NCBI GenBank assembly: GCA_004565275.1 | Contig: SDOX01000183.1 | Location: 28,035-92,034, forward strand | Source: Nannochloropsis salina CCMP1776 | Taxonomy: Eukaryota; Sar; Eustigmatophyceae; Eustigmatales; Monodopsidaceae | Direction: 5' to 3' | DNA: 64,000 nt | Shown: positions 31,248-61,235 of the stretch, piece by piece | Numbering within the stretch: the stretch's first letter is position 1 | Layout: every line of letters starts with the position of its first letter | Notes under the pieces: generated by a model | The model's database searches: none | What the model saw: the letters and a program-made list of their open reading frames with translations, nothing else | Told to the model about the DNA's origin: nothing | Translations under genes and position numbers: made by a program

Positions 31248-33235
31248 TCATTGTTCCGTCCTCTCCGTCCTTCTCGCCTCCCTGGCTTCACCATTCTCCG
31301 GCAACAAGGGCGTCGACGCCCCCCCCGCTCCCCGCCCGGTCTCCTTATCTCCCTTCTCCGTCACCGCTTCCCTCCCTCCCTCCCAACCCAATGTCCCCCA
31401 CGTGACACCCGCACCCAACAAGGCAATGGCTGCGCACATGCCCAACACTCCCTCCAACGTCCACGCGTCCAGGAGCAAAGGGAAGCAGTAGCCTCCCACC
31501 CATCCCCCCACCTTGCCCGCAGCTGCCGCCACTCCATTCAAGGTTGCCTTGACTTCCCGGGGGAAGAGCTTTGAAGGAAAAAGGTAGGTGGTGGCGCCCG
31601 GTCCGAAATTGAAGAAGGTGAAGCTCAATCCAAAGAGAACCAACGCCCAGCCCCCTTGTCCGGCGTTCGTCAGCCGCTCTCCGCACACGGCCAGCACCAA
31701 GTACAGGGTGGCACAGACTACGAATCCCTGAATTTGAACAAAGCGGGGCCCCAGACGAGGGATGAGCCACACGGAGAGGAAATACCCGGGCAGGGCAATG
31801 AGAGCAAGGATGAGACTGGTCTCGGCCTCCAGTAAGAAGGAAGGGCGGGTGCTGTCCTCGCCTCCCCCACTGCTCCGGCCGCCCCCACGGTCACCCCCGT
31901 TGTCATGGCTTCGCACGTCCGAGGGCGCCTTGTCCTGGAAAAGAGCCGTCCCGATCACGGGCTGGAAAAGGGCGTTCCCAAAGAAGCACACATCGTACAA
32001 AAACCACGTCAGGCAACACCCCACCAGCTCCCGAAGAATTCTTCCGTCGCGCAAGGCCTCTCTCAGGGCGTGCGAGGCTGCCCTGGCCCCAGCACCGGCG
32101 TCCAATTCCTCCTCTTTCGGCCTGCACGAGGAGGACGGGAGGGAGGGAGGGAGGAAGGGAGGGTCGAGGGCCACCTGTGCCTCCTCCTCTGTCCCCGAGG
32201 CCGTGTCCTCCACCACGTCATCCAAAAGGGACAATCGGGGCCGGGCAGGCTTGCGAAAGCCCTTGGGGCGGCAAAGGCTTGGCCCTGTCCTCCCTAAGGA
32301 ACGGCGCCGGTGGATCCACCAGGTGGCGCCCAGGACGACGACCCCTGGCAGGGCCCCGAGGCCGAGCAGGAAGCGGAAAGCAAATTGGTCCGCACCCCGG
32401 TTCGTGGAGGATGAGTCTGGGAGGGCCTGAGTGAGGGGAGCCCAGGATTGAAGTCCGGTGGACCTGCCGGCTTGAAGAGGGAGGACCAAGGCCAATACAA
32501 GTGCCACGGCGTTCATGGTCACGAACGCGACTCCTTGCATGGAGAAGACCAAAGCAACCGGGCGGTCCGCCTTGCTTCCTTCACAGCCATGTCTAGCACC
32601 GTGATCTGCAGAAAGAGTAGCCTCAATGGGGCCTAACTTTGATCCCTCTGTCCCCTCGTGCCCCCCAGATCTCTCAGAGGCAGGCGGGGGTCGCGCGACC
32701 GCCGATGCATTCCAAGACATGGCTGCAGCCAGTGGATAAACACCTCCTGCGCCCACCCCAAGCACAAAGCGTGCCCCTGCCAGCTGCCAGTAGACTTGAG
32801 GAGGCGCAACCAATGTGCTTCCCAGCGCCGCGACCACTTGAAGGACGATGGTCAAGGTGAAGGCACGGGACACTCCCATGACATCACCCAAGAAGCCGCC
32901 TACAAGTTGACCGATGATCATACCTGTGAGGGTGCAGCCGCCACAGTGTGTGCGTGGGAGGAATTAGACAGAAGTGGGAAAGGAGGAAGCGGCCCACATA
33001 TTGAACATCGCGTACCCGCAAACATCGTCGAGGCACACAGGGACTTGTGCGACTCGGATAACGGGTAGAGACCATCCATCAAGAGTAAGACCAAGGAGAT
33101 GTTGACGATATTGTAGGCCGTGGAAAAGCTGCCTAGGTTTGAAATGATGACCTCCAGGTTGGGATAAGTCATGGTGCGGGGCTTCGAGGAGGGCGGGGGT
33201 GTGTGTGCCCGGAAGGCGGAAAAGTCAGAGGCCAT
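31248..33235 (-). CDS. MFS transporter, phosphate:H+ symporter-like
   Basis: Exons complement of 33016-33235 and 31248-32923 join in phase (G + GT) to 631 residues. The first span contains FSTAYNIVNISLVLLLMDGL, matching the D/N-I-V-N start of PHT1/Pho84 transporters. After the intron come MIIGQLVGGFLGDVMGVSRA and ARFVLGVGAGGVYPLAAAMS, which recalls the phosphate symporter signature GGDYPLS, with Val in place of Asp. That Asp is important in known phosphate carriers, so the substrate may differ. A large central loop is charged and low complexity. Late spans include ALIALPGYFLSVWLIPRLGP and FNFGPGATTYLFPSKLFP, also typical of the family. It is predicted to be a plasma or organelle membrane protein. 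Confidence 0.82.
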
Positions 33236-34406: not shown

Positions 34407-35603
34407 ATGGCAGCAGTCGTTGCGACCGCTGCTTCAGCCACAAAGGCTCATAATGGGGGCTCTGGAGCGGGAGGACAAGGAGGAGAGAGCAATGGAATCA
34501 CAGGTGGAGCACACCAATCACTCAGTCGAGAAGACGGCGCTCCTCACAAGACCAAGCATTGTTGGGAAGTAGAGGAGGAAGAAAAAGGAGAGGGCCGCAA
34601 GCCGAGCCACAAACGACAACTATCTGTGTCCTCGAGCAACGTCCTAGATAATATGGGCTGCTTGGAAGATGTGGTACGGAGCAAAAGGGTGGTGGTGCTC
34701 CTGGACTATGATGGGACCTTAACCCCTATCGTCAGTGACCCGGCTAAAGCCTGGCTCCCCGCGCAGACGCGGGACATCCTCGTCGAACTGGCGGAGCGTT
34801 GCGTGGTGGGCATTGTGTCTGGGCGGTCCTTGTTGAAGGTGAAAGGCTTCGTGCAGGTGCCTTCCCTGTTTTATGCCGGTTCGCACGGCTTTGATATTTG
34901 GGGTCCGACCACCGAATCCATGCGGTACCAGGTGGCGGCAGACCAGCTCCCTGACCTGGCGCGTCTAAGAGACACCTTGACAGAACAGCTGCGAGGCATT
35001 GAAGGGGCGGCGGTGGAGGACAACGTCTTCTCGGTCTCGGTCCACTATCGTAACTGCGCCCCGGATGACGTGCCCGCCGTATACGAAATCGTGCAAACCG
35101 CACGTCAAGCCTTTCCCTCCATTCGCTTTGGGACGGGCAAATGTGTCTTTGAACTGCGTCCAGACATCACCTGGGATAAAGGGAAGGCGATGGTGTGGTT
35201 GCTGCAGGCGTTGGGTCTGTGGGAGGAGGAGGACGTTTTTGCCATTTATATCGGGGACGACACGACGGATGAGGATGCCTTCCGCATTTTCCACCACGAG
35301 GACCGGGCGGAAGGGATCGGGATCGTGGTTACGGCGGAGAACAAGCTGACGGGGGCCAAGTACAGCTTGCGAAATCCGGAGGAAGTGGCGGTGTTTTTGG
35401 CGCGCTTGGTGGAGCTGCGCGGTCATGTGCAGGCGGAAGGGAACAGCTCGGTCAAAGACATCAAAATGGACTGGGCGAGGACCCCGTTGGCGAGGGCGTT
35501 TGAGCCTGGGAACCCCGCGGGCGAGAAGAAGGAGAGGGAGCGTGGGGAGAATGGGGTAGAGGGGGGGGTCGAACGGAATCATGGGGAGGAGCAGGGACGT
35601 TGA
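34407..35603 (+). CDS. Trehalose-6-phosphate phosphatase
   Basis: A single exon of 398 residues. HAD motif I is VVVLLDYDGTLTPIVSD, with the nucleophile at about D100 and D102. Motif II is VGIVSGRSL; YAGSHGFDIWGP is a trehalose-phosphatase hallmark; VEDNVFSVSVHYRNCA is the cap region; and FAIYIGDDTTDEDAF carries the metal-binding acids. The enzyme dephosphorylates trehalose 6-phosphate to trehalose in the cytosol. There is no synthase (GT20) domain, so it is a stand-alone phosphatase like plant TPPs, and the synthase must be encoded elsewhere. The first 80 residues are Ser/Gly/Glu-rich and probably disordered. The C-terminal 40 residues are charged low complexity. No targeting signal is seen. 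Confidence 0.95.
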   Translation: MAAVVATAASATKAHNGGSGAGGQGGESNGITGGAHQSLSREDGAPHKTKHCWEVEEEEKGEGRKPSHKRQLSVSSSNVLDNMGCLEDVVRSKRVVVLLDYDGTLTPIVSDPAKAWLPAQTRDILVELAERCVVGIVSGRSLLKVKGFVQVPSLFYAGSHGFDIWGPTTESMRYQVAADQLPDLARLRDTLTEQLRGIEGAAVEDNVFSVSVHYRNCAPDDVPAVYEIVQTARQAFPSIRFGTGKCVFELRPDITWDKGKAMVWLLQALGLWEEEDVFAIYIGDDTTDEDAFRIFHHEDRAEGIGIVVTAENKLTGAKYSLRNPEEVAVFLARLVELRGHVQAEGNSSVKDIKMDWARTPLARAFEPGNPAGEKKERERGENGVEGGVERNHGEEQGR

Positions 35604-36869: not shown

Positions 36870-39211
36870 TTAATTGGGCGGACTTGGCGGCTGATCCCCA
36901 CAGCATCCACGCCCTCCCTCTCCCGCCCCACCAGTCTCGATCGACGCGCCATTCTTTTCCGGTGGCAGGTCCTGCGCGGGGTTCCTGTCGAAGAAGGATA
37001 CGGGCTTCAACTTGAGGGAGATCGTTTCCACCGGCATAGTCCCAAAGTCCTCCGTCCTGACCACGTGCGTGAGGCCGTAGGCGGGCCAGACGACCACGTC
37101 CGCGTCCCGCACCGATCGCTTCTGCCGGACCCATTGAGGCAGCCCTTGCCCTCCTTCCGACTGAGTGGGGTACTCTCCCGCAGGCCACCGTTCCTGGCGT
37201 GCGTACGGGGTGACCCACATGTTCTTGGAGGCGAAGGCGCCTTTTCGGGCGACCAAACTGGTCGGCGAAGCTAAGAGCAAAGGGTTCTCGGGTACGACGA
37301 TTTTATACCCCACCGGCTGCCCCAACCGGTTCTGAACGCGCGGGTTTCGAACGATCCAGGCCCGGGCCGTGGCCGCCGAGGCAACGCGTTGGCCCATCTC
37401 CTCATTTTCGAGGACGGTCTCTCGGACGACGAAGCCGTTCCCACAGGGATTGAGGGTCGGGTGGGGGGGGGCAGCTACCACCTCCTGCTCCACCACCTCC
37501 AAGTGCTTCCCACCCTCCGGGTCATCGACGGCCATGTCTAGACGCACACAGAACATGTGCTGGTGGTGCTGGGCGTTCACGCCAGGGTCGACCAAGGTGC
37601 CGTACGCGGGAATTTCCTCCCCGGGGGACAAGGCGTTAGTGGAGAGCTGGCCCGTCAGCTTGATATCGAACTCCATGCTTCCGTCTTGATACAAATACCA
37701 GTAGTTCTGGAAGGGGAAGGGGGGGAAAATGGAGGGGACAGGAGGGCATATCCCCGCCCGAGGAGCGATGAGCAATGGCGGAAAGGGAGCATAGCACCGC
37801 ACAGGTTGAATATTTTGAGATGTTGCTTGCGCGCCCTTTCCGTTACCGATCCCACTTCCCCAGGCACCTCCCTCCCGTACCAGATATTCATAGTTCACCA
37901 CGGTGGTCAAGAAGCTGATCACAAGCCTCCGGGCGCGACGCGATTCGGAATGCCCCGTCCGGTAGTCCACGTGCTTCCAGAGCAGGCCCACGTCTTCCTC
38001 GTGCATGCAGACCGCTTTGTGCACCACCACGGGGTGGCCCTTCCGGTCGTTCAGGACCGCGTCGAAGTACTTGATCGCCCCCAGGCAGTCGCAGCCCAAG
38101 GACAGGGACGTGGTGCAGTTTCCTAAGCGTACGAGCACGTAGGGGCGGGCAGGGGCCGAAGCAATACCAGGGTCAGAAAGCTCCAAACCCTCGCTCTCCG
38201 CATCACTCCCACGCTCACCCCCGAACCCTCCTGTCCCTGTACTTTCTTCCTTTCCCACTCACCCAGTCCGTAGTCCGACACATCGAAAGCACATTTTCGA
38301 TGGTATGGTGCACGGGGCTCCGCGTAGGGCACGGCCATCTCCACCATGGAGGCACGGAACAGGACGGGACGCAGGCGGCCCAGGTCCTGGTAGCCGACTT
38401 GATGGAGCACCAAGCCCTCCCGAAAATTAAAGCCTACACGAAAAGACCACTTCTGCCAGCTCACCTTATTGCCAACCACCGTGAACGACGGCCCCTCGGG
38501 CTGGACGACGTTCAAAGGCTTGGGAGGATCGGCACGCAAGCCGCCTTCAACCAGGGCATGGTGGTAGTTGTTGGGCACCTCATTGACCCGTTGCGGGATC
38601 TCCGTGACGTCAATGTGAACGACGCACGCTCGGTCCAAATCGAGCACAGGGACCATGTCGATGGGGTGGGCGTATTGATTGTCATTGGGACTGAGACGTT
38701 TGTACAAGAACAACTGCACCAGGCGCCCCGACAATTTCCCATGTTCGTGGACACTCCACGGGTCGCACGCCACATCAGACTGCACGTCATGGATGCCGTA
38801 GCGCGATGCAAGCATTTCGCATACCTTGGCATCCGCCTTGCAAATCTCTTCCGCTTCGAAACAGTCTTCAGGGGTGATGAGGGGCTGAACAGCAGGGACC
38901 TGCTGCCATTCCTCAACCTCCCCCGTATCCAAGTTCAAGATTACCTCCACGATGGCATACACCTCCTCTCCTTGGTACAGACTGCGGGGCGGCTGTAGAA
39001 TGGCAAAACACTTGCGCGCCGGGATAGGACCTTTTCCAGCATCAAATGCCAAAAGTTCGCTTTTAAGAGGCTCTTCCAACGTCACCACGTTGAAGATGGG
39101 GGACCGTGCATGGGGGTACCTTTTCTCGAAGGCTGCCAGTATAAGGCCTGAGGCTTGCTTCATTTCTTCAGCTGACAGGGGATCAAGCGGATGCATGTCA
39201 AACGGAGCCAT
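36870..39211 (-). CDS. Copper amine oxidase (TPQ-dependent)
   Basis: Exons complement of 38263-39211, 37881-38122 and 36870-37706 join in phase to 675 residues. The protein has the N2/N3 domains and then the catalytic domain: VPYAEPRAPYHRKCAFDVSD followed by YGLGNCTTSLSLGCDCLG and the cofactor motif VVNYEYL, in which Tyr394 should become topaquinone. The copper ligands are in NAQHHQHMFCVRLDM (His-x-His), with the third His in LTHVVRTEDFGTMP. The enzyme oxidises primary amines to aldehydes with release of ammonia and hydrogen peroxide. Length fits the usual 650-700 residues. The start MAPFDMHPLDPL has no clear signal peptide; many fungal and bacterial relatives are peroxisomal or cytosolic. 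The last residues, QPPSPPN, do not form a clear peroxisomal signal. Confidence 0.96.
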
Positions 39212-42860: not shown

Positions 42861-44672
42861 CTAATTTTTCTTCTTTCTCTTCCCTCGTCTCTCCCTTCCA
42901 CGTTGAGAATTGGGATTCTTTCTCCCATACCCAAACTGTATACCGTTTGCTGCCGTACTTTTGGTTACCGCCACCCCCAAGGTCTCCGTGATGTCGGCTC
43001 CGAACATACTGTCCAGCATTTTGGTCCGCCTTTTCATCTTCTGCTGCCAGATTCCCATCTGGAGTTGGTCCTCTCGCAGCAACAAATCCCCTTCCCACCG
43101 ACTCGCCTTCCCCTTCCCGGGTTTGGGAATCGAGTACTTGCAGCCTGGCCGCGGCCGCCACAGCTTGCTGAGATGCACCCTTAGTTGACCCGTGGCACTG
43201 TCCACCGAGATGGAAACTCGAGACAGGTAAGCATTCCCACACCGCGGGCAAAACATCCGGTCCTGGTCGTGCACGAGTTTGGCGCAACTCTCGCACCGAC
43301 GCGCCCATTGCTTCACGCGCGTCACCGCCGCGCCTTCCAAGGACATCAAGCGGAGCCCCATTTGAAGCATCACGTTCTGCATCGCAAAATCCGTCGTCAC
43401 ACACGCGACCAAGGGGAGCGACGGCTCCATGGCCCCGTCTCTGCCCTGGGTCGGCCCTGTGCCCCCCCTCGGCCCAAAGACACTCTCCACCCCCTTCGCC
43501 CGGACGCTTGTCAGGTTCCCTGTGTGGATCCATCCCTCCTCATCATCCACCCCCTCCCCCGTGCCGGACGCAAGCCCCAGGGCCTCCTGTCCCGCGCCCC
43601 CCATGATCCGAGAGGTCACGCCTCCCTGCTCTCCCGCCCTGCCCTCCCCGACACGCGACAAGGCCGGGCGCGGCCCTCCCCGCGCCGTCTCTTCCATGGT
43701 CAACGCTTGGAAAGGGATGCTAGGGTCTGTGCCTTGACTCCGACGGGCCCCCATCGCCTTGGCCGGGGGAGGGGGGCGAGACGCCGTGGCCTTCACGGCC
43801 TGGGCCCAGCTTCTTCCTCCTTGGGGGCTGGCGTGCGACGGCGGTGGGGTTGGGAGGGAGGGAGGGGCTGGGGCGGGCCTTGCCCCTCCCTCATCGGCAA
43901 CACCCTCCGTCGTCGTGTCCCCCGCGTCCCTTTCTTCGTCTCCACTTCTTACGCTCCCGTCCGTCTCCTCTGTCTCCCCCTTCCCCCTACTCCACCACCT
44001 CCTCCTCCTCGCCCTCCTCCTCGTCCTCCCCTCCTCCTCCTCCTCCTCCTCCTCCTCCTTTCCCTCTCCTTCCTCCCCTCCCCCCTCCTCCCCCTCCTCC
44101 CCCTCCTCCTCGGCCTCACTCTCCTCCTCACTGCTATCAGACTCTATCACCTCCACGTACACGCGCTCACTCCCCGCCTCCCCTTCTTCCGTGGCCGGCC
44201 GCGCCTCTACTTCGACTGGCTTTTCACCCACTGAGTTCATTTCTGTCGGCGTCCCCCGCGCTTTCTCACCATTGACTGCATCCGCCGCGCTTTTTATGCT
44301 CGTCGTTGTGCGCAAGTGATCGACGTGGCCCCCGTGCGCCTCAGCATCCAGCGTATAGGTTAATGCCAACACCCTCAAGTCCACTTTGGAGAGGGCCGAG
44401 TAATCCCCCGTCTGCCGCGCAAACCCAGCCACGGCCTTGCAAGCCTCCGATGAAGGCTCGCGTGTCCGTAGCTCAAAAGGAAGAGAGTCCAAATGGAGGC
44501 GTGCCCGTGGATCGCGTACCTCCGCTATTACCTCGGGAATGGTCCAGAAGTGTTCGGCCAAGCGTGCCAGGCTGTAGCCTTGCCCTTTTATAATCGCCCC
44601 AGTGTCCAAAACCAGGTGGCGACTTTTGCTCCGGACACCGGGAGGTGTCTGAGGGGTAGGAGATGCGGACAT
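42861..44672 (-). CDS. NOB1: 20S pre-rRNA endonuclease NOB1
   Basis: A single exon of 604 residues from ATG 44672 (MSASPTPQT). The PIN nuclease domain has HLVLDTGAIIKGQG (first catalytic Asp), IPEVIAEVRD, LSKVDLRVLALTYTLDAE and, after a very long acidic and Ser/Pro/Gly-rich insertion, VTTDFAMQNVMLQMGL. The zinc ribbon is RCESCAKLV with MFCPRCGNAYLSRVS, followed by the basic C-terminal domain. NOB1 cleaves 20S pre-rRNA at site D in late cytoplasmic 40S maturation. The insertion of about 280 residues inside the PIN domain is much longer than in yeast or human NOB1 and is encoded partly by CTC/CCT arrays at about 43990-44112. The frame is open far upstream of the chosen ATG but without family similarity. 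Confidence 0.94.
   Translation of the reverse strand: MSASPTPQTPPGVRSKSRHLVLDTGAIIKGQGYSLARLAEHFWTIPEVIAEVRDPRARLHLDSLPFELRTREPSSEACKAVAGFARQTGDYSALSKVDLRVLALTYTLDAEAHGGHVDHLRTTTSIKSAADAVNGEKARGTPTEMNSVGEKPVEVEARPATEEGEAGSERVYVEVIESDSSEEESEAEEEGEEGEEGGGEEGEGKEEEEEEEEEGRTRRRARRRRWWSRGKGETEETDGSVRSGDEERDAGDTTTEGVADEGGARPAPAPPSLPTPPPSHASPQGGRSWAQAVKATASRPPPPAKAMGARRSQGTDPSIPFQALTMEETARGGPRPALSRVGEGRAGEQGGVTSRIMGGAGQEALGLASGTGEGVDDEEGWIHTGNLTSVRAKGVESVFGPRGGTGPTQGRDGAMEPSLPLVACVTTDFAMQNVMLQMGLRLMSLEGAAVTRVKQWARRCESCAKLVHDQDRMFCPRCGNAYLSRVSISVDSATGQLRVHLSKLWRPRPGCKYSIPKPGKGKASRWEGDLLLREDQLQMGIWQQKMKRRTKMLDSMFGADITETLGVAVTKSTAANGIQFGYGRKNPNSQRGRERRGKRKKKN
43990..44112 (-). repeat. CTC/CCT triplet arrays in NOB1 (poly-Glu)
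   Basis: Interrupted CTC/CCT repeats on the plus strand, read as GAG (Glu) runs on the NOB1 strand, within the insertion of the PIN domain. Confidence 0.8.
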
Positions 44673-45156
44673 CTCGACCGGAGTCCGCGCGCTATGGCGG
44701 GTTGTGCTGCTCGTCACCCTCGCTGCTCCTGGGTTTGGTAGTATCTTGACGGGGGGGGGGTTCGCAAAGGGAAGGACTGTGAAGACCATCATTGTCAAAC
44801 AAGGGCCAGTTACGGTCATCTCACAAACTTTCACAGCCCTGCGGATTACCAGTCCCAATCATGCGACGGTGGACTTTGCCAATCGTCGTGTAATGCGTCT
44901 CGAACTAAACAGCACCTCGCTAAGCCATCGCTTCGAGTTGCATCGCTGGTGCTAGCAGGGGTCCAATATATTAAGCATAAGATAATTGTCCTCAATGTAC
45001 GACTGAAGACGAGTTTTTCCGTCGAGAGTAAATGAAACTTGTCTCCATGTTCAGGAAATGATCTTGTATGGCTCTTTTTTCTTCCAAAAAGGCCAAAATT
45101 TTCATTTGCTACCTTTCCTTATCGCATTCAGGCCTTCATAGCTTCGTGCGCTCCGT
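44673..45156. other. Divergent promoter region, NOB1 and the nardilysin-like gene
   Basis: About 480 bp between two start codons; no gene is seen. Confidence 0.55.
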
Positions 45157-48100: not shown

Positions 48101-49963
48101 CCTTCTTCTCCGTCTCTATGCTCGACAGAGAGCCTTCACATCGCACAGTCTAAGCTGCTGTGTCCTTCCGTCCTCCTTTCCTTCCTTCCCCCCCCTCCTT
48201 CCCTCCCTCCCTCCCTCCCTCTTGTTGGTCGTCAGCCACCGAGCTGGGCCTGGAGCTGACTTTCCACGGTCTTTCCGACAAACTCCTCCGCCTTGTGGAC
48301 CTCGTCCTCCGCCGGCTCCTGGTCCGTGAAGGCGGGAGCGAGGGCGGGAAGGAGGACCCGCTCTTTCCATCGTCCTGTGCCGGCCTTTCCTCCTCCCCCC
48401 AGGCCGTCCGATTCGCGGCCCAGAAAGAGGCCTTGCTCCGGGTCTATGCCAACGGAAACATGAAACCGAGCAGGCACGCCCGGAATCTGAGGCTGGGGGT
48501 GCTGAAGGAGAAGATGTGGCAGTGCGAGGAGCTCGAGAGAGAGGCCCGGAGCCTGACGCTGGAGGCGGTGGCGGCGTTTGCCCCACGCCTGTTGGAGGCG
48601 CTGCAGGTGGACGGCTTGTACCAGGTGCGGGGGAGGGAGGGCAGCAGGGAGGGCAGGAAGGAGGGGTGGAGGGAGGGAAGGAGGGAGGGCGGGGATACTG
48701 GTACCCGTAATGACAGCCACGCTTTCCTTCCGTAGCCCTTCCCTCCTTCACGCCTTCCCGTTTCCATTTTGCGCCTTCCCCCCCTCCACCCCCGACAGGG
48801 CAATTGCGATCGTGCCGACGCCCAGGCCCTCGAAAGCCTCCTCCTCTCCCTCCTCCAGCTCGCCGGCACACGCCCTCTGTCCCCTGCGGCCTATCCCTCC
48901 AACCGGATTGCCGTCCTTCCCCCCGGACACAACCTCCTCCTGGCCGCCGAGAGCGTGAACGCGGGGGAGAGGAACTCGGCCTTGGAAGCGTATTGGCAGC
49001 TTGGGCCGGACACGATCGAACGCCGGGTGGTGGTTCAAATGCTGGAGAAGGTGCGTGTCTCGCGACCCGGACGTGCGGGCCTTGCTTGCCTGTCGAGATC
49101 ATTGGCTGGTGTCCTGACTGGCATGTCCCCCTGTGTGCGTATGCCCCCTCGCCCCTTCCTTCCCCTCCCTCCCTCCCTCCTTCCCTCAGCTTATGGAGGA
49201 GCCGCTCTACGACACCCTCCGCACCAAGGAGCAGCTAGGGTACTCGGTTTCCTGCGGGCTCCGGATGACCAACGGCATTCTGGGCCTGGCCGTTAAAATC
49301 CAGTCCGAGCGTTACGAACCCGAGCATTTGCACGCACGTCTGGAGGCGTTTTTACAGAGCTTTCACGCCAGCATGTCTACCCTCCCTCCCTCCGTGTACG
49401 CCCGTCAACTGGTGGCTTTGGCTCAGAACAAGCTGCAGCGAGACGCGTCTTTGAACGAGGAAGCAGGCAGGTACTGGGCGGAGATTGTGGATCGACGCTT
49501 CCAGTTCGACGTGGGCCCTTTGGAAGCTCGGCAGCTCTTGAGCGTGAGCCTGGCGCAGGTTTTGGCACTCTTTGAGGAAAGCGTAGGGGTGAACGCGGAG
49601 AAAGCGCGGCATGCGGCGGTGTATGTGACGGGGCGGGCGTGCCGGGCTCGGAGGGGTGTAAGGGAAGGGCGAGAAAAGGAAAGCTTCGCACGGTCGGGCA
49701 AAGCAACAGAGGGCGAGGGCGGAAAAGAAGCGGTGGAAGGGACCCAGACGCCGACACAGGCACCGGCAGAGACGCCTTCGTCAGATGGAAGCGTGGTAAA
49801 GCCTCAAAAGAAGCCCGGCTCTCTCCTGTTGAGTGCCAAAGTCCGAAGGTTGGCGCAAATCTCCGAGCGCGTGGGTGGCCCGATGGCCGTGGATGCGCCC
49901 AGTGGAGGAGGACATGGAAGGGAGGGAGGAACGGAACCCGAGTTCTACCCAAATTTGACCTGA
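45157..49963 (+). CDS. Nardilysin-like M16 metalloprotease, with two apparent frame breaks
   Basis: Exons: about 45157-46710 (perhaps with a 63-bp intron at 46502-46564), 46815-48052, 48236-48624, 48799-49050 and 49190-49963. The start reads YRLVTLDNGLEALLIHD, then a long Glu/Asp-rich insertion, then AAMAVGVGSFHDPVEIQG and the inverted zinc motif LAHYLEHMLFMGS (HxxEH), with RELEAIESEF supplying the last ligand. Later marks are HLLGHEGPGSILAALK and EEPLYDTLRTKEQLGYSVSC. Acidic insertion at this place is the hallmark of nardilysin, a cousin of insulin-degrading enzyme; both cut short peptides, nardilysin before Arg in dibasic sites. Two frame changes occur, one at a C11 run (45630-45640) and one near a G10 run (45847-45856). 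Each fits one missing base, so sequencing error is likely. The C-terminus is truncated relative to animal enzymes and Lys/Glu/Pro-rich. Confidence 0.88.
45424..45511 (+). repeat. GAG/GAT triplet array (acidic insertion)
   Basis: GAG, GAT and GAA triplets encode a Glu/Asp run inside the M16 domain of the nardilysin-like gene. Confidence 0.85.
46513..46558 (+). repeat. (CCCT)n array next to CTACAG
   Basis: The array is either a Leu-Pro-Pro-Ser coding repeat or the pyrimidine tract of a 63-bp intron (46502-46564). Both readings keep the frame. Confidence 0.8.
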
Positions 49964-50543: not shown

Positions 50544-52202
50544 TCATCCCTCCAACTCCGCCCCAACCTCCTGCCGCAATCTGCCCACGGTCTCCTCCAC
50601 CCCTTCCTCCTCCACCAGGGTAAAATTCGTCAGAAACGTGGAAAAATTGAGGAGCGGGGTGGCGTCGTCCATCTTGCACATGGCAGCGACCAACCCCGTT
50701 TCTTCGAATCCGAAGGGCCGCCCGCAGAGTTTCAGCGCCCGCCACCTTAATGGACAAGGAAGCAGGGCCAAAGGCGGGAAGAGCGGGAGGGCCTCCTCCT
50801 CCAGGAGGAGGGTGACTTCCCCTTCCATTTCCACCAATGCCAGGGGCCCGAACTCCAGGTCGGGGGGTAGGACGGGACCTAGGGAGGGGGAGGGACGGTG
50901 ATGGGTGTGGGGCCAACCGGAGCGGGTCCCCTGCGGAGTGGGGTGGTTCGGGTTGAGGGAGGAGGAGGGAAGGGGAGGGATGGGGATGGAGGCTGAGGCT
51001 CCTGCCTTGACGCCAGAGGAGGAGGAGGAGGAGGAGGAGTAGGGAGGCGTCGGATACGCGTCGGGCATCACCGCTGGTGTTTCTCTCCCTTGCCCTCTAT
51101 CCCTCCCTCTCGTCCCTTCCCCCCCTCCCCCCGCCCCAAAGCGGCGGATGGCCAGGCGGTCGAAGAGGAGAAGGCGGGCGAGAAGATCGGAACGCTCTGG
51201 CAAGGCCTCCTGGTTCAGGCGTGCCAAGACGAGGGACTGAGGCATCACACGAAGGGTGAGGGGAGGGGAGGTGGGGCCCACAAAGGTGGAGAAGGGGGAG
51301 GTGGAAAGGGAGGGCGGGGAGGAGGGCTTGGCCAGAGGGCACCCGGGCGCCCAGGATGGCTGCTGATGAGACAGGAAGGGACGGGGAGGTTCGGAGGCTG
51401 CCAGTCGTCCTCCCGCCCCTCTTTCCTTACCGCTTCCTCCTTCCTTTCCCCCCCGGTTGTGCGGAATGTCGGCGGGAAGGAGACCGGCGGGTGAAGGGCC
51501 CGGGGCGGGAGACGAGGGGCCGAAGGAGGGAGGGGCGGAGGACGCAGCCCGGGACGTTCCCGAGGTGGCAGGCGTCGCCAGGCGCGAGGGGGGAGACGAA
51601 GAGGGAGGGAGGACCCGGGATGGCCCCACACGGAGCTTCTGCACCCAGGAGGAAAGCAACGAGGCCGGTCTCCCCGCTGTCCCTCCCTCCCTTCCCTTCC
51701 TTCCCTCCCCCTCGCCGTCACGGCTCACCCCAATCTCATGCATCTTCCGGTCCACGTCCCCCCCGTCCTCCTCCCCTCCCTCCCGCTTCACAGGCGACCC
51801 TAGGTACGATGGACTCCCGCCCTCCGAGTCGGTGCCTGCCTGGACCGATCCGATCCGCTCGGCATGGGCCGCCAGGACCCCGTGCAACGCCGCGTCCACA
51901 CGTTCGCGAATGCACCGGACCGCCGAGACGAGCTCAGGGGCCTGGACCAAAAAGATCTCCGCGCTGTAGGTGCTGTGGTGGAGGATGGAGATATTCTCGT
52001 CCGCCATGAGTTTGGCCAGGTGGTTGACTACCCCGGGCACCTCCGCGACCGTGTGCCCGAGGCAGAACTCCAAGGCCCGCCACGGGGTGGGGGCCAGGTG
52101 GAGGAGGTGGGCGAGGCCGGAGGCAACCACACGTTTGTACTGCGCTTGGCTCATCACCAAGGTGGCCCCGTCTCCGTCCAGGATCAAGGCGCGCATGGGG
52201 GC
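50544..52202 (-). CDS. CASTOR/GATS-like ACT-domain protein (arginine-sensor family), 5' end unresolved
   Basis: The main exon, complement of 50544-52202, follows a CTCCAG acceptor and encodes 553 residues; the first exon or exons are not placed. The first half matches CASTOR: ATLVMSQAQYKRVVASGLAH, then WRALEFCLGH, VNHLAKLMADENISILHHST and YSAEIFLVQAPEL. After a low-complexity linker of about 270 residues comes the second half: ARLNQEALPERSDLLARLLL, LALVEMEGEVTLLLEEEALP, WRALKLCGRPFGFEETGLVA and LNFSTFLTNFTLVEEEGVEE. The last two copy the CASTOR pattern IGGQPLGFDECGIVAQI and STFNFDHALVPEDGI. Human CASTOR1 binds arginine between ACT domains and so controls GATOR2 and mTORC1. Arginine binding here is inference. 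The frame is open upstream to a poly-Glu stretch near 52560-52620 that may be a separate exon or noise. Confidence 0.78.
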   Translation of the reverse strand, partial: APMRALILDGDGATLVMSQAQYKRVVASGLAHLLHLAPTPWRALEFCLGHTVAEVPGVVNHLAKLMADENISILHHSTYSAEIFLVQAPELVSAVRCIRERVDAALHGVLAAHAERIGSVQAGTDSEGGSPSYLGSPVKREGGEEDGGDVDRKMHEIGVSRDGEGEGRKGREGGTAGRPASLLSSWVQKLRVGPSRVLPPSSSPPSRLATPATSGTSRAASSAPPSFGPSSPAPGPSPAGLLPADIPHNRGGKEGGSGKERGAGGRLAASEPPRPFLSHQQPSWAPGCPLAKPSSPPSLSTSPFSTFVGPTSPPLTLRVMPQSLVLARLNQEALPERSDLLARLLLFDRLAIRRFGAGGGGEGTRGRDRGQGRETPAVMPDAYPTPPYSSSSSSSSGVKAGASASIPIPPLPSSSLNPNHPTPQGTRSGWPHTHHRPSPSLGPVLPPDLEFGPLALVEMEGEVTLLLEEEALPLFPPLALLPCPLRWRALKLCGRPFGFEETGLVAAMCKMDDATPLLNFSTFLTNFTLVEEEGVEETVGRLRQEVGAELEG

Positions 52203-53430
52203 CTGGAGGAGGGCGGGAGGGAGGGCGGGGGGGGGGGGAGGGAGGGTTGGAGGGAAGGGGGGAGGAAGAAAGAGGGCGGGGGCATGGTATATGAGAGGAC
52301 GGGAGGTCTTTGAATCGTACTGTTTGACAACCACGCTGGAGCAGGCACTTCGAGCAGGCGAGGACGTAGGAGCAAAACGCACGGGACATGGTACAGACAT
52401 GGGAGAGGTTTCAAAAAGAGGAAAAAGAGGGTTCGAGGTAAAATTACAAATCCCCCCCCCGCCTTGTTGCCCAGTAAATACCTGCTGTTGGCGTGTGCGG
52501 ATCCTGTACTCATTCAACTCATTCCCTCCTGCCCATTCCGTTCCTCCGCGTGTCTCCCCTCCCTCTTCCTCCTCCTCCTCCTCCTCCGCCTCCTCCTCCT
52601 CCTCCTCTTCCGAAAACAGAGCCACCTTCAGAATAATCCATGAGGCCTGAAGGACATATTGACCTATCGTGTAACAGTAAAGGCCGATGATGTGATCAAC
52701 TTTTCCGACCTGCCCACATTTGCAGCCATTTCCCCACCGGACAAGTGTAACTCACGTGCGATGTGTGCGATTATGAGCTCCCCGGGCAGCAACCGACAGT
52801 CGAGCTGCGCCGTGCTCAAGATGATCCCATCGTTGTCCCATTCCTCTCCTCCTCCATAATGGTAAAAGTCATGCTGCAGAGGTGGATCGTGGCCGTGGTA
52901 CATGGTGTGGGCCGCTCGAAGCGAGAGAGCGCGAGGACAGCCACGCACCCCCCTCCAAGGCTCTGTTCTGTTCCAGAACCCTCAATTCTGGACAGACAAG
53001 GCCCTGTGCACGCAGGTGGACAAGGTTGAAGTGTCAGAGTTGAGGCGGCAGCATCGTATTCCGTCTCGCAAAGCGCGGGCAACGCGTAGGAAGCCACGGC
53101 GTTTCCTGCAAGTGCATTTTTCCAAGAAGGACGAGCAACCGATCGACTCGATGAGCTTCTCGATGCTTCGCTTTTTGAGGGAAGATACGTCCACTTGAAC
53201 GCCTCGCAAACATACAAGCGGTCTCGCACAATGCATGCAGGAATTCGATGTTGTCTGGCAGGTGAAGAAACAGTGTGGCATGTGTCCGTGCCGATTCATA
53301 TGGGGCTGGTCGGCCCAACTTCTTGCGACCACCGCGCTTAGCAAACCATCTGTACGTCATGCCGCTGCCCTCTCAACAGCAACTTCACCCTGATTTTTTT
53401 ATTTCAACGTCCACGACCGACATAGGTACC
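52203..53430. other. Unresolved region upstream of the CASTOR-like gene
   Basis: About 1.2 kb. It should hold the first exons of the CASTOR-like gene and the promoter of the next gene. Minus-strand pieces that look partly protein-like are at 52760-52906 (FYHYGGGEEWDNDGIILSTA, then a GTGAGT donor) and 52982-53200. I could not join them to the main exon with certainty. A GAG-rich array lies at about 52560-52617. Confidence 0.4.
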
Positions 53431-55701
53431 ATGAGACGACATGGCACGGACATTAAAATGTTTTGGGCATCTGTCTTGGTAATCTTATTGATGGTGGCAC
53501 CGGCCAGCACGTGGGGCTTCTACCTCCTCCCCGTCTCCTCCTTGCTCAACGTGCGGTTGACTTCCAGACCGCTGTCCACCGCCCTGGCATCACAGCAGCC
53601 ACCTCCATCGCGCCGAGATAGCGGAGAGTACATACCACAGTCCTACGGGTTGGAAGAGGAGGCGGAAGATCCCTACCTCGTGTCCCTAAAGCGTGGCGAG
53701 CCTCCTCGTCGGGAGGCAGGCGTTGGTTCCACGAGTGCATCGCCCGCGGGGCCTTCGCACGCTGGCCAGACACGGACGCCTGAGGAGATCAAGGCCTTGA
53801 ACGAGGCGGCCAAGGCACGCATGGAAGCCTACGCGCGGGGCGAGAAACCGCCCGGATTTGGAGCATCCCCGCCTGTCCCTTCTGGTTTCACCCCCTCCAC
53901 CCCCGATACCCCGGAGGGTTTTAACCCCAACAAATTCATGGATTTCTACCGGGAGCACGAGGCCAAGCTAGCGGCTGAAAACGCCGCAAAGGCCGCCGAG
54001 ACCCCGGCGCAAGTTGCAGTCCCTCGACCTCAAGGAGCCCCTATCATGCCAGGCGTGCCCGAGCCTTACCAACCTCCGCCCCAATACCAACAGCAGCCGT
54101 CCCCCGCCCAACTCCAGGCACAAGAAGAGCAAGCAAAGGGCTCTCCCCAAAGCTACGAGTCTCACGGAGGTTCCCGGTTCAAGGGTTTTTTTGACGCGGC
54201 CGCCGCCGCCGGGTCCACGAATCCGGCCAAGGAGAGGTTGAAGCAGTACCTGCTCTCCCGCTACGCCCCCGACGATATGTCCGAGCAGGCCGTAAATTAC
54301 CGACGGCTCATCCAATTCGCGGACACGGGCGGCGGGTACACGGGCTCGTCGACGGAGGACTCGGACGAGGCCTACCTGGCCCAGCTCAAAGCGGACGCTC
54401 GGGAGAAGATCCGCAACAACCCCTGGCAGACGGTGCGGAGGGAGGAGCTGGCCCCCTCTGAGAAAGGCGTGCCCCTGCCCCCCCTGGCTCCTACACCCGA
54501 ACCCACCGGGACCCAGGCAGCAGCCCGTCAAGACGCTGGCCTGGGACGCCCCCCCCCGCCTCCATCCATGTCAGGGAGCTCCCCTCTCCCCCCCCCCCCG
54601 GGATGGATTCCTCCTTCCTCGCCCCCGCCCTCGACGACTCCTTCTTCTGCCTACGCCTCCCCTCCCTCTTACACTCCTTCCCCCGCACAAATTCCCTCCC
54701 CTCCTCCCCCGTTCCCTCCCTCCCCCGGCCCCTCCCCCCCCGCGCTCGCCCAAATGGGCATAGAGAGCTCTCTGACCCAGCTGGGAGCCTACTTGACCGC
54801 CCACAAGGCCACGGGGGAACGCCTACAAGGCCAAGATTTGGACCGGCTCGAGTCCCTCCTGACCTCCGTGGGCGCCATGCTGGAAGGGGAGGGCCGGCGC
54901 TTGGGCTCCCGCCCAGCCTACCCGGAGGAAGAGGGTCCAGGCGTTCCAGTGCAGGGGTTCCTGGTGGAGAGGGAGGAAAGGGAGGTGTTGCTGGCGACAG
55001 CGGCAAGTCTACAGGCCCTAGCGGGGCTGGGTGCGGACGAAGAGGGTGCCTTGGCCGCTGGGCGGGAGGTGCCCCGCTTGCAGGTTCTCTTGAGACGTGC
55101 TCTGACCGTAGTGGACGGGCCTTCGGGAGGAGAAGCCCCGGAGTACTCACAGAAAGCTGGCGCGTCGCCTCCCTCCGAAGCCTCGTCGGCCCCGGCGGCT
55201 ATGCAGGGACCTGGGGCCACGCCACGGCCGCAGTCAGTACGTGACGTTTCCCCACCGGTCCCTGCCTCCCCGTCCCTCACCCCACCACCTTCACCTCCTT
55301 CTCCCCCTTCCTCCGCCCCGCCTCCCTCCTTAGACACGGTGGAGCTGAGCAGTGAGGATCGGGCGAAATTGCAAGGGACGATGGCCTTGGTGTTGAAGCA
55401 CTCGGGGGCCTTTGGGAAAATGAGCGGGCCGTTACGGGGGGAGGAACTCGGCTTGTTGAAGAGTGTACTGAATGACACCATGGCTGTTTTGAGAAAGGAA
55501 ACCGAAACAGCTTACGATTGCAGTGTGGAAAAATATTTGGAAGACCATCCGCACGCAATGGAGGAGCTGGCGGAGGCCCAAGCGGCAGCAGCAAGCACCG
55601 GGTCACAATTCACCGTATTGAACGTCCCCGCGCCGGCCGCGGGGAAGCCGAAATCATACAAGGAATTGCTGAGCGAGGCCAGGCAAAAGAAAAAGCCATA
55701 A
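53431..55701 (+). CDS. Leader-bearing, probably plastid protein of unknown function
   Basis: A single exon of 756 residues from ATG 53431 (MRRHGTDIKM); 53458 is a second possible start. The hydrophobic segment MFWASVLVILLMVAPASTWG ends just before FYLLP, which fits an ER signal peptide with an aromatic residue at the cleavage site, as in stramenopile plastid leaders. The mature part alternates Pro/Ser/Gly-rich linkers with short helical blocks: DPYLVSLKRGEPPR, ALNEAAKARMEAYARGEKPP, RLKQYLLSRYAPDDMSEQAV, EAYLAQLKADAREKIRNNPW and, near the end, LGLLKSVLNDTMAVLRKETE and SYKELLSEARQKKK. No known domain was recognised. It could be a scaffold-like or nucleoid-associated plastid protein, but there is no direct evidence for any role. 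Confidence 0.75.
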   Translation: MRRHGTDIKMFWASVLVILLMVAPASTWGFYLLPVSSLLNVRLTSRPLSTALASQQPPPSRRDSGEYIPQSYGLEEEAEDPYLVSLKRGEPPRREAGVGSTSASPAGPSHAGQTRTPEEIKALNEAAKARMEAYARGEKPPGFGASPPVPSGFTPSTPDTPEGFNPNKFMDFYREHEAKLAAENAAKAAETPAQVAVPRPQGAPIMPGVPEPYQPPPQYQQQPSPAQLQAQEEQAKGSPQSYESHGGSRFKGFFDAAAAAGSTNPAKERLKQYLLSRYAPDDMSEQAVNYRRLIQFADTGGGYTGSSTEDSDEAYLAQLKADAREKIRNNPWQTVRREELAPSEKGVPLPPLAPTPEPTGTQAAARQDAGLGRPPPPPSMSGSSPLPPPPGWIPPSSPPPSTTPSSAYASPPSYTPSPAQIPSPPPPFPPSPGPSPPALAQMGIESSLTQLGAYLTAHKATGERLQGQDLDRLESLLTSVGAMLEGEGRRLGSRPAYPEEEGPGVPVQGFLVEREEREVLLATAASLQALAGLGADEEGALAAGREVPRLQVLLRRALTVVDGPSGGEAPEYSQKAGASPPSEASSAPAAMQGPGATPRPQSVRDVSPPVPASPSLTPPPSPPSPPSSAPPPSLDTVELSSEDRAKLQGTMALVLKHSGAFGKMSGPLRGEELGLLKSVLNDTMAVLRKETETAYDCSVEKYLEDHPHAMEELAEAQAAAASTGSQFTVLNVPAPAAGKPKSYKELLSEARQKKKP

Positions 55702-59588: not shown

Positions 59589-61235
59589 ATGCACCCAAAG
59601 GCCCGAACCCCCCCTTCCCCCACCTCTCCCCGCTCCATATCCCTCGCCTCCCTCTCTTTCCTCACGGTGCTCTCCCTGAAGCTCCTGTCCATGCTCCTCT
59701 ACCACGCACTCGGCCCCGTCCTCAACCGCTCCCTCCCTTCCCACCTGGCGGCAGAGGGGCCCTCCCTCCTCGGCGTGGATCACGTGCTTCGGGTGCCGGT
59801 GCCCCGTCCTGGAAAGGGAGGGAGGGATCGAGGCGGGGACAGGGACGAATTGGGCGACGATTCTCTCTTCATGACGCTCTTGGTCAAGAAAGCTCTGCCT
59901 CCAGCAGGAGAGGGAGGGGAGTGGCAAGGGGAGGGAGGAGGCGGGAGCAAAGGTGGTGTCGTAAGGGAGGAAAGGGGAAAAGGCAACCTCCCTCCCCTCC
60001 TCTTCCTCCTTCACGGCTTTCCCGACGACCCCAGCACCTTCCACGCGCAGGTTCTCCCCTTTGCTCGCGCCGGTTTCGACGTCCTCCTCCCGGTCATGCC
60101 CGGGTACGAGCCCAGCACGGCCCTCCTTCCCTCCTCATCATACTCCCTCCCGTCCCTTGCTACCATGCTAGAAGATGTGATAGCCTGGGCGCAGTCGCCT
60201 GCCCTGGCCCGTGCGTTGTGCGGAGGGAAAGCAGAGGGTGGGAAAGGGGAGGAGGGACAGCAAGGGGGGGGGTTGGAGGAAGGGGAAATCGGGGAGGAAG
60301 AGTGCAGGAACCCACTTCCGCGCGACGTGCACCTGTTTGGCCACGATTGGGGCGCCGTGCTTGCCTACATATTGGCGCAAAAGGGGAGCAGGGAAAAGGT
60401 TCGCGTGACCTCGGTGGTCACCGTGGCCGTTCCTCACGAGGCCGCCCGAGGCTTCCTCACGCATCCTCGCCAGTTCCTGAATTCCTGGTACATGCTCTTC
60501 ATTGTGAGTGGACCGAGTGGGATGGAGTATCGTATGGGAGGAGGGGTGTGTACCCATTGCTGTTTTTCTCTTGTGCCGGGAGGCGGGAAAGGTCACGCTT
60601 TGCAGGGACTTTCGGAGGTTAAGCACTGTACCCCTCCTTCCACAGTCGATCTTGTGACGCCCCCGGGACCACCGCTTTCCCTCTCACATGCCCTTCTCGG
60701 CCTTCCCCTTCTCTTCCCTTCCCAGCAACTTCCTTTCCTCCCCGAGTTCTGGTTCCGCGCCGGCGGTCGCTTTTGGGGCTTGCACCAACTCTGGAGAGGG
60801 TGGTCGCCGGGCTATACCCTCCCTCCTTCTCATCTCGCCTCGCTCCATGCCACTTTCTCGGAGCCCGGGGTCCTGATGAGCAGCATGCAATACTACCGCG
60901 ATAATGTGCCGGGCATGCTCCTCGAGATATTAAAGGCCAGACTGGGGTGGGGGGGGTCGGGGACGGAGGGAGAGGGAGAGAGGAAAGAAGCGTCGGTGGT
61001 CGCGGCGCCGACGTTGGCATTGTCGGGCTTAAACGATGGGTGTATTGACCCTGTCCTCTACGACGCGGCCATGGGCCTGCCTACGGACGGCATGCGGGTG
61101 GACCACACCTTGTTCCCAGCGGGGGTCCGGGTGATGAAATTGGAAGGAGGGGGACATTTCCTCCACCGGGAAAAGGCCGAGGAGGTGAATGACTTGGCCG
61201 TGGCGTGGTTCAAGAAGCACTCAAAAATGGGATGA
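59589..61235 (+). CDS. Alpha/beta hydrolase, epoxide hydrolase-like
   Basis: Exons 59589-60503 and 60726-61235 join in phase 0 to about 474 residues. The oxyanion motif is LFLLHGFPDDPSTF, the nucleophile elbow HLFGHDWGAVLAYILA (Asp as nucleophile, as in epoxide hydrolases and dehalogenases), the likely acid is LSGLNDGCID, and the catalytic His is in LEGGGHFLHREKAEEV. The cap region contains YYRDNVPGML, whose Tyr may polarise the epoxide. It probably opens epoxides to diols, but fluoroacetate dehalogenase-like activity is possible. The first 40 residues include SISLASLSFLTVLSLKLLSM, a membrane anchor or signal peptide, so the protein may sit in the ER. Two Gly/Glu-rich insertions lie near residues 75-130 and 215-240. 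Confidence 0.88.
   Translation: MHPKARTPPSPTSPRSISLASLSFLTVLSLKLLSMLLYHALGPVLNRSLPSHLAAEGPSLLGVDHVLRVPVPRPGKGGRDRGGDRDELGDDSLFMTLLVKKALPPAGEGGEWQGEGGGGSKGGVVREERGKGNLPPLLFLLHGFPDDPSTFHAQVLPFARAGFDVLLPVMPGYEPSTALLPSSSYSLPSLATMLEDVIAWAQSPALARALCGGKAEGGKGEEGQQGGGLEEGEIGEEECRNPLPRDVHLFGHDWGAVLAYILAQKGSREKVRVTSVVTVAVPHEAARGFLTHPRQFLNSWYMLFIVSGPSGMEYRMGGGVCTHCCFSLVPGGGKGHALQGLSEVKHCTPPSTVDLVTPPGPPLSLSHALLGLPLLFPSQQLPFLPEFWFRAGGRFWGLHQLWRGWSPGYTLPPSHLASLHATFSEPGVLMSSMQYYRDNVPGMLLEILKARLGWGGSGTEGEGERKEASVVAAPTLALSGLNDGCIDPVLYDAAMGLPTDGMRVDHTLFPAGVRVMKLEGGGHFLHREKAEEVNDLAVAWFKKHSKMG

What the first reader, a model, noticed from the sequence alone, without database searches (positions are those of the whole stretch)
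50544..52202. CASTOR/GATS-type ACT protein in an alga
CASTOR proteins are known as cytosolic arginine sensors for mTORC1 in animals. This gene keeps the paired ACT pattern, including GRPFGFEETGLVA and the STF element, but separates the two halves by a 270-residue linker. An algal member would let one ask whether arginine sensing by this fold predates animals or whether the fold has another ligand here.
Basis: partly seen in the sequence, partly recalled or inferred. Interest (0 to 1): 0.75.

Follow-up and report, generated by a model that had tools for sequence, protein, structure and literature searches.

The report
CASTOR-like nutrient sensor, altered arginine pocket
A gene in a small eukaryotic genome, probably an alga's, encodes a relative of the animal arginine sensor CASTOR together with much of the machinery that CASTOR controls, but the acidic residue that grips arginine is replaced, so it may sense something else.

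Summary
The gene is real and its closest solved relatives are CASTOR1/2: a profile of the conserved core of two algal sequences finds CASTOR2 (E 2.7e-13), CASTOR1 (1.1e-12) and nothing else below E 0.3. Aspartate kinases score no better than a reversed control. The genome also encodes WDR24, WDR59, IML1, NPR2, Rag and TOR homologues; Mios and NPR3 were not found, which does not prove absence.

Two corrections. The '270-residue linker' contains a conserved ACT3 piece, part of the rest may be intron, and the missing start of ACT1 is probably encoded upstream across a 92-base intron (not seen by hmmsearch). And the pocket is not fully kept: 9 of 14 arginine-pocket positions are identical, but Asp304, the guanidinium salt-bridge partner, is Asn in all three sequences at hand.

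Best reading: a CASTOR-family GATOR2 regulator whose ligand is unlikely to be arginine bound as in animals. AlphaFold models were too poor to use. CASTOR1/2 in some microalgae was already reported (PMC9664231). New variant of a known kind.

The parts
51882..52196 (-). N half (residues 1-105): second part of ACT1 plus ACT2, with Ser111-equivalent S70 and GATOR2-face Y77/S78/E80
   Evidence: Pfam ACT_7 31.3 bits on the N half (113 aa) alone; aligns colinearly with the CASTOR1 NTD; 82 of 105 identical to P0003
51270..51881 (-). Insert 1 (residues 106-309): low-complexity linker, may contain an in-frame intron 51728..51363
   Evidence: 85 of 197 identical to P0003 with 48 gap columns; GC1/2/3 0.68/0.68/0.75; GTGAGC donor and CAG acceptor
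51135..51269 (-).
   Evidence: 30 of 45 identical to P0003; aligned to CASTOR1/2 by the algal-only profile
50862..51134 (-). Insert 2 (residues 355-445): low-complexity stretch interrupting ACT3, coding status uncertain
   Evidence: 40 of 89 identical with 36 gap columns; acceptor-like CCTCCCTAG at its end but no good in-phase donor
50544..50861 (-). C half (residues 446-550 and stop): rest of ACT3 plus ACT4, lid GRPFGFEETGLV and STFLTNF
   Evidence: Pfam ACT_7 19.3 bits on the C-terminal piece; hmmsearch to CASTOR1/2; 81 of 101 identical to P0003 (446-546)
50625..50627 (-). Codon AAT, Asn524, at the place of CASTOR1 Asp304
   Evidence: Asn also in P0002 and P0003; Asp in 115 of 119 listed CASTOR homologues, the other 4 lacking the motif searched
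52756..52903 (-). Probable upstream exon (ATG at 52903) with the first ACT1 strand ...CRLLPGELIIAHIA
   Evidence: best of 4327 enumerated spliced or unspliced 33-mers, score 25.25 versus next 8.75; maximum of 72 control stretches 16.0; most of the score is likeness to the gene's own ACT3 piece (43.0), little to CASTOR1 ACT1 (7.5); not found by hmmsearch
52664..52755 (-). Probable intron, 92 bases, GTGAGT...TAG
   Evidence: donor and acceptor read
52482..52663 (-). Probable second exon with ACT1 helix (QYVLQASWIILKVALFSE) and acidic run, in the frame of the main ORF; end uncertain (GTATTT at 52481, acceptor before 52202)
   Evidence: the far splice site by eye only

Best explanation
It is a CASTOR-family protein: two ACT-pair halves that fold on each other and hold a small ligand between ACT2 and ACT4. 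By inference it docks on the GATOR2 cage when unliganded and lets go when liganded, so that GATOR2 can restrain GATOR1 and TORC1 stays active. The clamp for the amino acid backbone is kept (S70, and the E499/G501-V503 loop). The acid that holds the guanidinium is Asn and Phe303 is Thr, so the ligand is most likely not arginine, at least not bound as in animals. A neutral, amide-like amino acid is my guess. Shown by sequence: family kinship, pocket residues, presence of GATOR2, GATOR1, Rag and TOR homologues. Inferred: GATOR2 docking, ligand, direction of signalling.
For: Profile of two algal cores: CASTOR2 2.7e-13 (colinear, profile 31-263 against chain 68-322), CASTOR1 1.1e-12, next Atu0741 0.38. 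phmmer of P0001: all 10 distinct PDB sequences at E up to 10 are CASTOR1/2. hhalign 4e-10 against 13 CASTOR1 sequences; 0.075 against the genome's two aspartokinase ACT regions, no better than a reversed control. Pocket: 9 of 14 identical, 3 conservative, F303T and D304N (pocket list from PMC5020642 passages). WDR24, WDR59, IML1, NPR2, Rag and TOR FRB homologues in the genome. No kinase domain in the 550 aa by Pfam.
Against: Mios, the direct CASTOR1 partner, was not found: MIOS_a-sol none, MIOS_WD40 0.058 in what reads as a Sec31-like frame. Pfam's CASTOR-specific models PF18700 and PF21389 did not match at E up to 10, while 103 of the 119 CASTOR homologues listed carry both by my count. Two of the four Mios-facing residues are clearly changed and one is conservative. 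The region holding the Mios-releasing loop is 4 residues shorter (31 versus 35 positions between the Trp76 and Ser111 equivalents; sequences). Adding the inferred ACT1 start did not improve the PDB match (best 1.8e-10 with it). No usable structure. No expression or binding data.
Confidence: 0.42

Rival explanations
1. It is an arginine sensor like CASTOR1: arginine still binds, with Asn524 and main-chain groups holding the guanidinium.
For: Ser111, the lid Gly-Phe, Glu277, Gly279, Val281, Thr300 and Phe301 equivalents are identical. In CASTOR1 the guanidinium also bonds to the main chains of four residues (PMC5020642 passages).
Against: D304A (PMC5187391) and D304L (PMC5020642) abolish arginine binding (passages). 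Asp is found in 115 of 119 listed CASTOR homologues, the other 4 lacking the motif searched, but Asn in 3 of 3 sequences of this gene and its near relatives.
Confidence: 0.17
2. It is a ligand-independent GATOR2 inhibitor like CASTOR2, regulated by amount, dimerisation or phosphorylation of the linker.
For: The algal-only profile scores CASTOR2 slightly above CASTOR1 (2.7e-13 versus 1.1e-12). CASTOR2 does not bind arginine (PMC5187391 passage). Linker blocks such as AGTDSEGGSP are identical in P0001 and P0003.
Against: The score difference is about 2 bits. The backbone clamp is conserved, which a dead pocket would not need. CASTOR2 itself keeps Asp at this place (alignment).
Confidence: 0.2
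3. It is an ACT regulator of amino acid metabolism without a link to TORC1; GATOR2 docking is an opisthokont invention.
For: Mios not found; Mios-facing residues only partly kept; no CASTOR-specific Pfam match.
Against: WDR24, WDR59, IML1, NPR2, Rag and TOR homologues are present; it is closer to CASTOR than to any other protein in the PDB sequence search.
Confidence: 0.18

Closest known systems
CASTOR2 (PDB 9kpb)
   Same: Colinear match over both halves, best PDB hit of the algal-only profile (E 2.7e-13); conserved Trp, S-T-Y, GQPLGFDECGIVA-type lid, STF.
   Different: The protein here has two low-complexity inserts and Asn where CASTOR2 has Asp at position 304 (alignment).
CASTOR1 (PDB 5i2c)
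   Same: E 1.7e-12; 9 of 14 pocket positions identical including Ser111.
   Different: D304N, F303T; Q119S/G, D121E, Y236E on the Mios face; shorter releasing-loop region; no PF18700 or PF21389 match.
CASTOR orthologues of early-diverging fungi (PMC11836306) and of some microalgae (PMC9664231)
   Same: Same family outside animals, alongside GATOR components, as those papers state.
   Different: Their sequences were not compared here. In the passages and the section that I read the pocket residue is not discussed; the main text of PMC9664231 does not mention Nannochloropsis.
Aspartate kinase ACT regions
   Same: ACT_7 domains; similar ACT arrangement according to PMC5020642 (passages).
   Different: No kinase domain here; hhalign 0.075 against the genome's own two, NCBIfam 0.15 for the whole protein and 0.01 for the N half alone.

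Membership tests
CASTOR (GATS-like) family | Best and colinear similarity to CASTOR1/2 over both halves | tested here: met
   CASTOR1/2 first, next PDB sequence E 0.38
CASTOR (GATS-like) family | Four ACT units, no catalytic domain | tested here: inconclusive
   ACT2, ACT3, ACT4 and part of ACT1 in the ORF; the start of ACT1 only by an inferred intron, missed by hmmsearch
CASTOR (GATS-like) family | Match to Pfam PF18700 and PF21389 | tested here: not met
   no match at E up to 10. I assume these models rest on animal-type sequences and give this little weight; that was not checked
CASTOR1-type arginine sensor | Ser111 and Asp304 at the arginine pocket | tested here: not met
   Ser70 kept, Asp304 is Asn524 in 3 of 3 sequences
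CASTOR1-type arginine sensor | Binds arginine at micromolar concentration | not testable with these tools
   needs calorimetry
CASTOR (GATS-like) family | GATOR2 (Mios)-binding face Y118/Q119/D121/Y236 | tested here: inconclusive
   Y77, S78, E80, E460: one identical, one conservative, two changed; the face still holds acids
CASTOR (GATS-like) family | GATOR2 present in the genome | tested here: inconclusive
   WDR24 and WDR59 present; Mios not found; Seh1 and Sec13 not searched
Aspartate kinase | Amino acid kinase domain and better score to aspartate kinase ACT | tested here: not met
   two frames that read as aspartate kinases lie elsewhere in the genome

The most novel reading that the evidence does not exclude
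Outside animals and fungi a CASTOR protein works on GATOR2 but senses a ligand other than arginine. Arginine specificity of CASTOR1 (Asp304) would then be one tuning of an older, general amino-acid-sensing module already coupled to, or available to, GATOR2 in an early eukaryote.
Probability: 0.27. Interest if true: 0.78.

Novelty: new variant of a known kind. Interest (0 to 1): 0.52.

Why it matters
A 2022 review says CASTOR1 has no readily identifiable orthologues outside vertebrates (PMC8945916, passages). [quoted passage not shown] A member in what may be a microalga, beside WDR24, WDR59, IML1 and Rags, would push the module deeper, or imply gene transfer. The Asp304-to-Asn change gives a direct test of whether arginine was the original ligand or a later specialisation. 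It also offers a candidate TORC1 nitrogen sensor in such an organism.

Tried and rejected
Full-length AlphaFold with the three algal rows: pLDDT 32. C half with 24 CASTOR homologue rows plus two algal rows: pLDDT 42. No fold search was run on such models. Full-length MAFFT with CASTOR1 misplaced the N half, so cores and halves were used instead. Protein searches with P0001 and with its C half listed only P0002 and P0003, although the database holds nr, UniRef and EukProt entries: either close relatives are few or the word-based search is too blunt. The search with the mixed alignment A1, which contained human CASTOR1, was flooded by vertebrate CASTOR1 (559 hits, best 120 listed) and did not list P0003, so the spread among other protists is untested. 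Prokaryote and virus contig scans: no relative (81 and 20 pattern matches, none confirmed). Mios: the weak MIOS_WD40 hit is in a frame that reads like Sec31 (my reading). Of six PF17120 hits, two are over the cut-off (WDR59, WDR24); of the other four, three frames were read and look like ordinary RING proteins, the fourth (L007) was not opened. NPR3 not found. Considered and rejected: aspartate kinase fragment; excision of the ACT3 strand-helix as intron (it is conserved). The upstream exon was first seen by eye and then tested by enumeration; hmmsearch did not support it, no CASTOR N-terminal Pfam match appeared, and the PDB score did not rise with it, though the CASTOR2 match then ran from residue 4.

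Full report
The observation. The minus-strand frame from ATG 52196 to stop 50544 encodes 550 residues. The window is G000:C48:28035-92034 of a 26.5 Mb assembly in 103 contigs. Pfam finds ACT_7 at 6.5e-12 with two stretches; the N half alone scores 31.3 bits, the C-terminal piece alone 19.3, below the cut-off of 27. ACT_7 rings in 13 of 14 control prokaryotes and in the genome's own aspartate-kinase-like frames, so it does not settle the family by itself.

Which family. phmmer of the protein against PDB gives 10 distinct sequences at E up to 10, all CASTOR1 or CASTOR2, best 1.2e-10; that score sums three stretches, the best of them with i-E 1.7e-5. A profile from only two cores (P0001 and P0003, linkers removed) gives CASTOR2 2.7e-13 as one colinear match, CASTOR1 1.1e-12, then Atu0741 at 0.38. 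hhalign gives 4e-10 to 13 CASTOR1 sequences (human plus 12 of the 119 at hand) and 0.075 to the ACT regions of the genome's two aspartate kinases. Reversed cores give 0.016 (CASTOR) and 0.48 (aspartate kinase) in local mode, 0.49 and 0.24 in global mode, so the aspartate kinase match is no better than control. Those two frames, which I read as aspartate kinases, one fused to a homoserine-dehydrogenase-like part, are elsewhere on C1 and C72. The gene is CASTOR-type, not aspartate kinase. Against: no match to PF18700 or PF21389.

Anatomy. The conserved parts are residues 1-105 (82 of 105 identical to P0003), 310-354 (30 of 45) and 446-546 (81 of 101); the stretches between are 85 of 197 and 40 of 89 with many gaps. 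Residues 310-354 correspond to the ACT3 strand-helix of CASTOR, so the 'linker' is two inserts. The ACT halves show codon-position GC of 0.68/0.41/0.88 and 0.68/0.40/0.77, the inserts 0.68/0.68/0.75 and 0.62/0.73/0.73. The inserts' openness is not remarkable for their composition (194 of 2000 and 607 of 2000 simulations open). A GTGAGC donor and a CAG acceptor would remove 366 bases of insert 1 in frame. The linker length is therefore open.

The missing start of ACT1. CASTOR1 begins with a strand and a helix that the 550-residue frame lacks, and the ATG follows a pyrimidine tract and CAG by six bases. Reading the upstream DNA I noticed two pieces that, joined across a GTGAGT...TAG intron of 92 bases (52755..52664), give CRLLPGELIIAHIARQYVLQASWIILKVALFSE, which aligns without gaps to the algal ACT3 piece. 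An enumeration of such joins in 1160 bases puts it first of 4327 (25.25, next 8.75), and 72 control stretches of the same window reach at most 16.0. Nearly all of its score is likeness to the gene's own ACT3 piece (43.0), little to CASTOR1's ACT1 (7.5). hmmsearch with a CASTOR-weighted profile did not pick it out, and adding it did not raise the PDB score. I take it as probable, not shown.

The pocket. Of 14 positions named for CASTOR1 arginine binding in PMC5020642 (passages read), nine are identical (S111, L113, G274, F275, E277, G279, V281, T300, F301), three conservative (V112I, L273F, I280L), two changed (F303T, D304N) (alignment, residues). Asn524 (codon AAT, 50627..50625) is Asn in P0002 (96% identical) and P0003 (59%) too. 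In 119 listed CASTOR homologues, 115 have Asp and 4 lack the motif searched; Ser111 and Y118/Q119/D121 are found in 119 of 119; those with names in the listing are vertebrates. D304L (PMC5020642) and D304A (PMC5187391) abolish arginine binding; S111A abolishes it in the former and weakens it in the latter (passages). The Mios-facing residues Y118, Q119, D121, Y236 (PMC12136191, passages and section 7) are Y, S (G in P0003), E, E here. The segment with the Mios-releasing loop is four residues shorter.

The pathway. In the same genome: WDR24 (E 2.3e-70) and WDR59 (E 4.4e-41), each with beta-propeller-like and C-terminal RING parts, IML1/DEPDC5 (3.9e-14), NPR2 (1.6e-24), at least two Gtr/Rag loci, a TOR FRB domain (1.1e-28). 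Not found: Mios by two models and NPR3; these searches go exon by exon and nothing rang in the control genomes (those named in any tally are prokaryotes), so absence is not shown.

What is known. PMC8945916 (passages) says CASTOR1 has no readily identifiable orthologues outside vertebrates. PMC11836306 (passages) reports CASTOR in early-diverging fungi. [quoted passage not shown] its figure was not seen. In the listings of nine literature searches and the passages that I read I saw nothing on the pocket residue in such proteins; that is a statement about those only.

How it most likely works. By analogy, apo protein docks on GATOR2 and a small ligand between the halves releases it. The ligand clamp for an amino acid backbone is kept, the acid for arginine's side chain is not. 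I therefore favour a non-arginine ligand, ahead of a ligand-independent CASTOR2-like role, a TORC1-unlinked role, and conserved arginine sensing.

Limits. No usable structure was obtained. The spread of the family among other protists was not sampled.

Noticed in passing
window 49193-49963 (+) and upstream: Frame beginning MEEPLYDTLRTKEQLGYSVSCGLR looks like the C-terminal part of an insulinase-type peptidase (recalled motif, not searched).
   Followed up: no
window 53359-55701 (+): Divergently transcribed neighbour of 780 aa with a hydrophobic, signal-like stretch near its N terminus and long proline-rich stretches; not scanned.
   Followed up: no
window 13220-14872, 22626-25271, 31248-32921, 34407-35603, 38123-39211, 42861-44819, 59589-61235: Of 10 frames scanned (17 of at least 330 aa listed), seven have ordinary Pfam domains: amino acid transporter, alanyl-tRNA synthetase, sugar transporter, trehalose-phosphatase, copper amine oxidase, NOB1, alpha/beta hydrolase; three have none.
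   Followed up: partly
L014/L015 (G000:C1:541044-541481) and L016 (G000:C72:785653-785799): Two frames that read as aspartate kinases, one fused to a homoserine-dehydrogenase-like part; the only other ACT_7 loci listed for the genome.
   Followed up: partly
L026:4639-9891 (-): WDR59 homologue frame of 1750 aa carries long acidic low-complexity stretches, reminiscent of the inserts of the CASTOR-like gene; such inserts or retained introns may be a general habit of this genome.
   Followed up: no
L032 (G000:C93:341885-342055): Weak MIOS_WD40 hit (0.058) lies in a frame that reads like Sec31 (my reading), a warning against calling Mios from it.
   Followed up: partly
window 51356-52009 (+) and 51985-52650 (+): Long open frames overlap the gene on the other strand, as expected at high GC; nothing seen that marks them as genes.
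   Followed up: no
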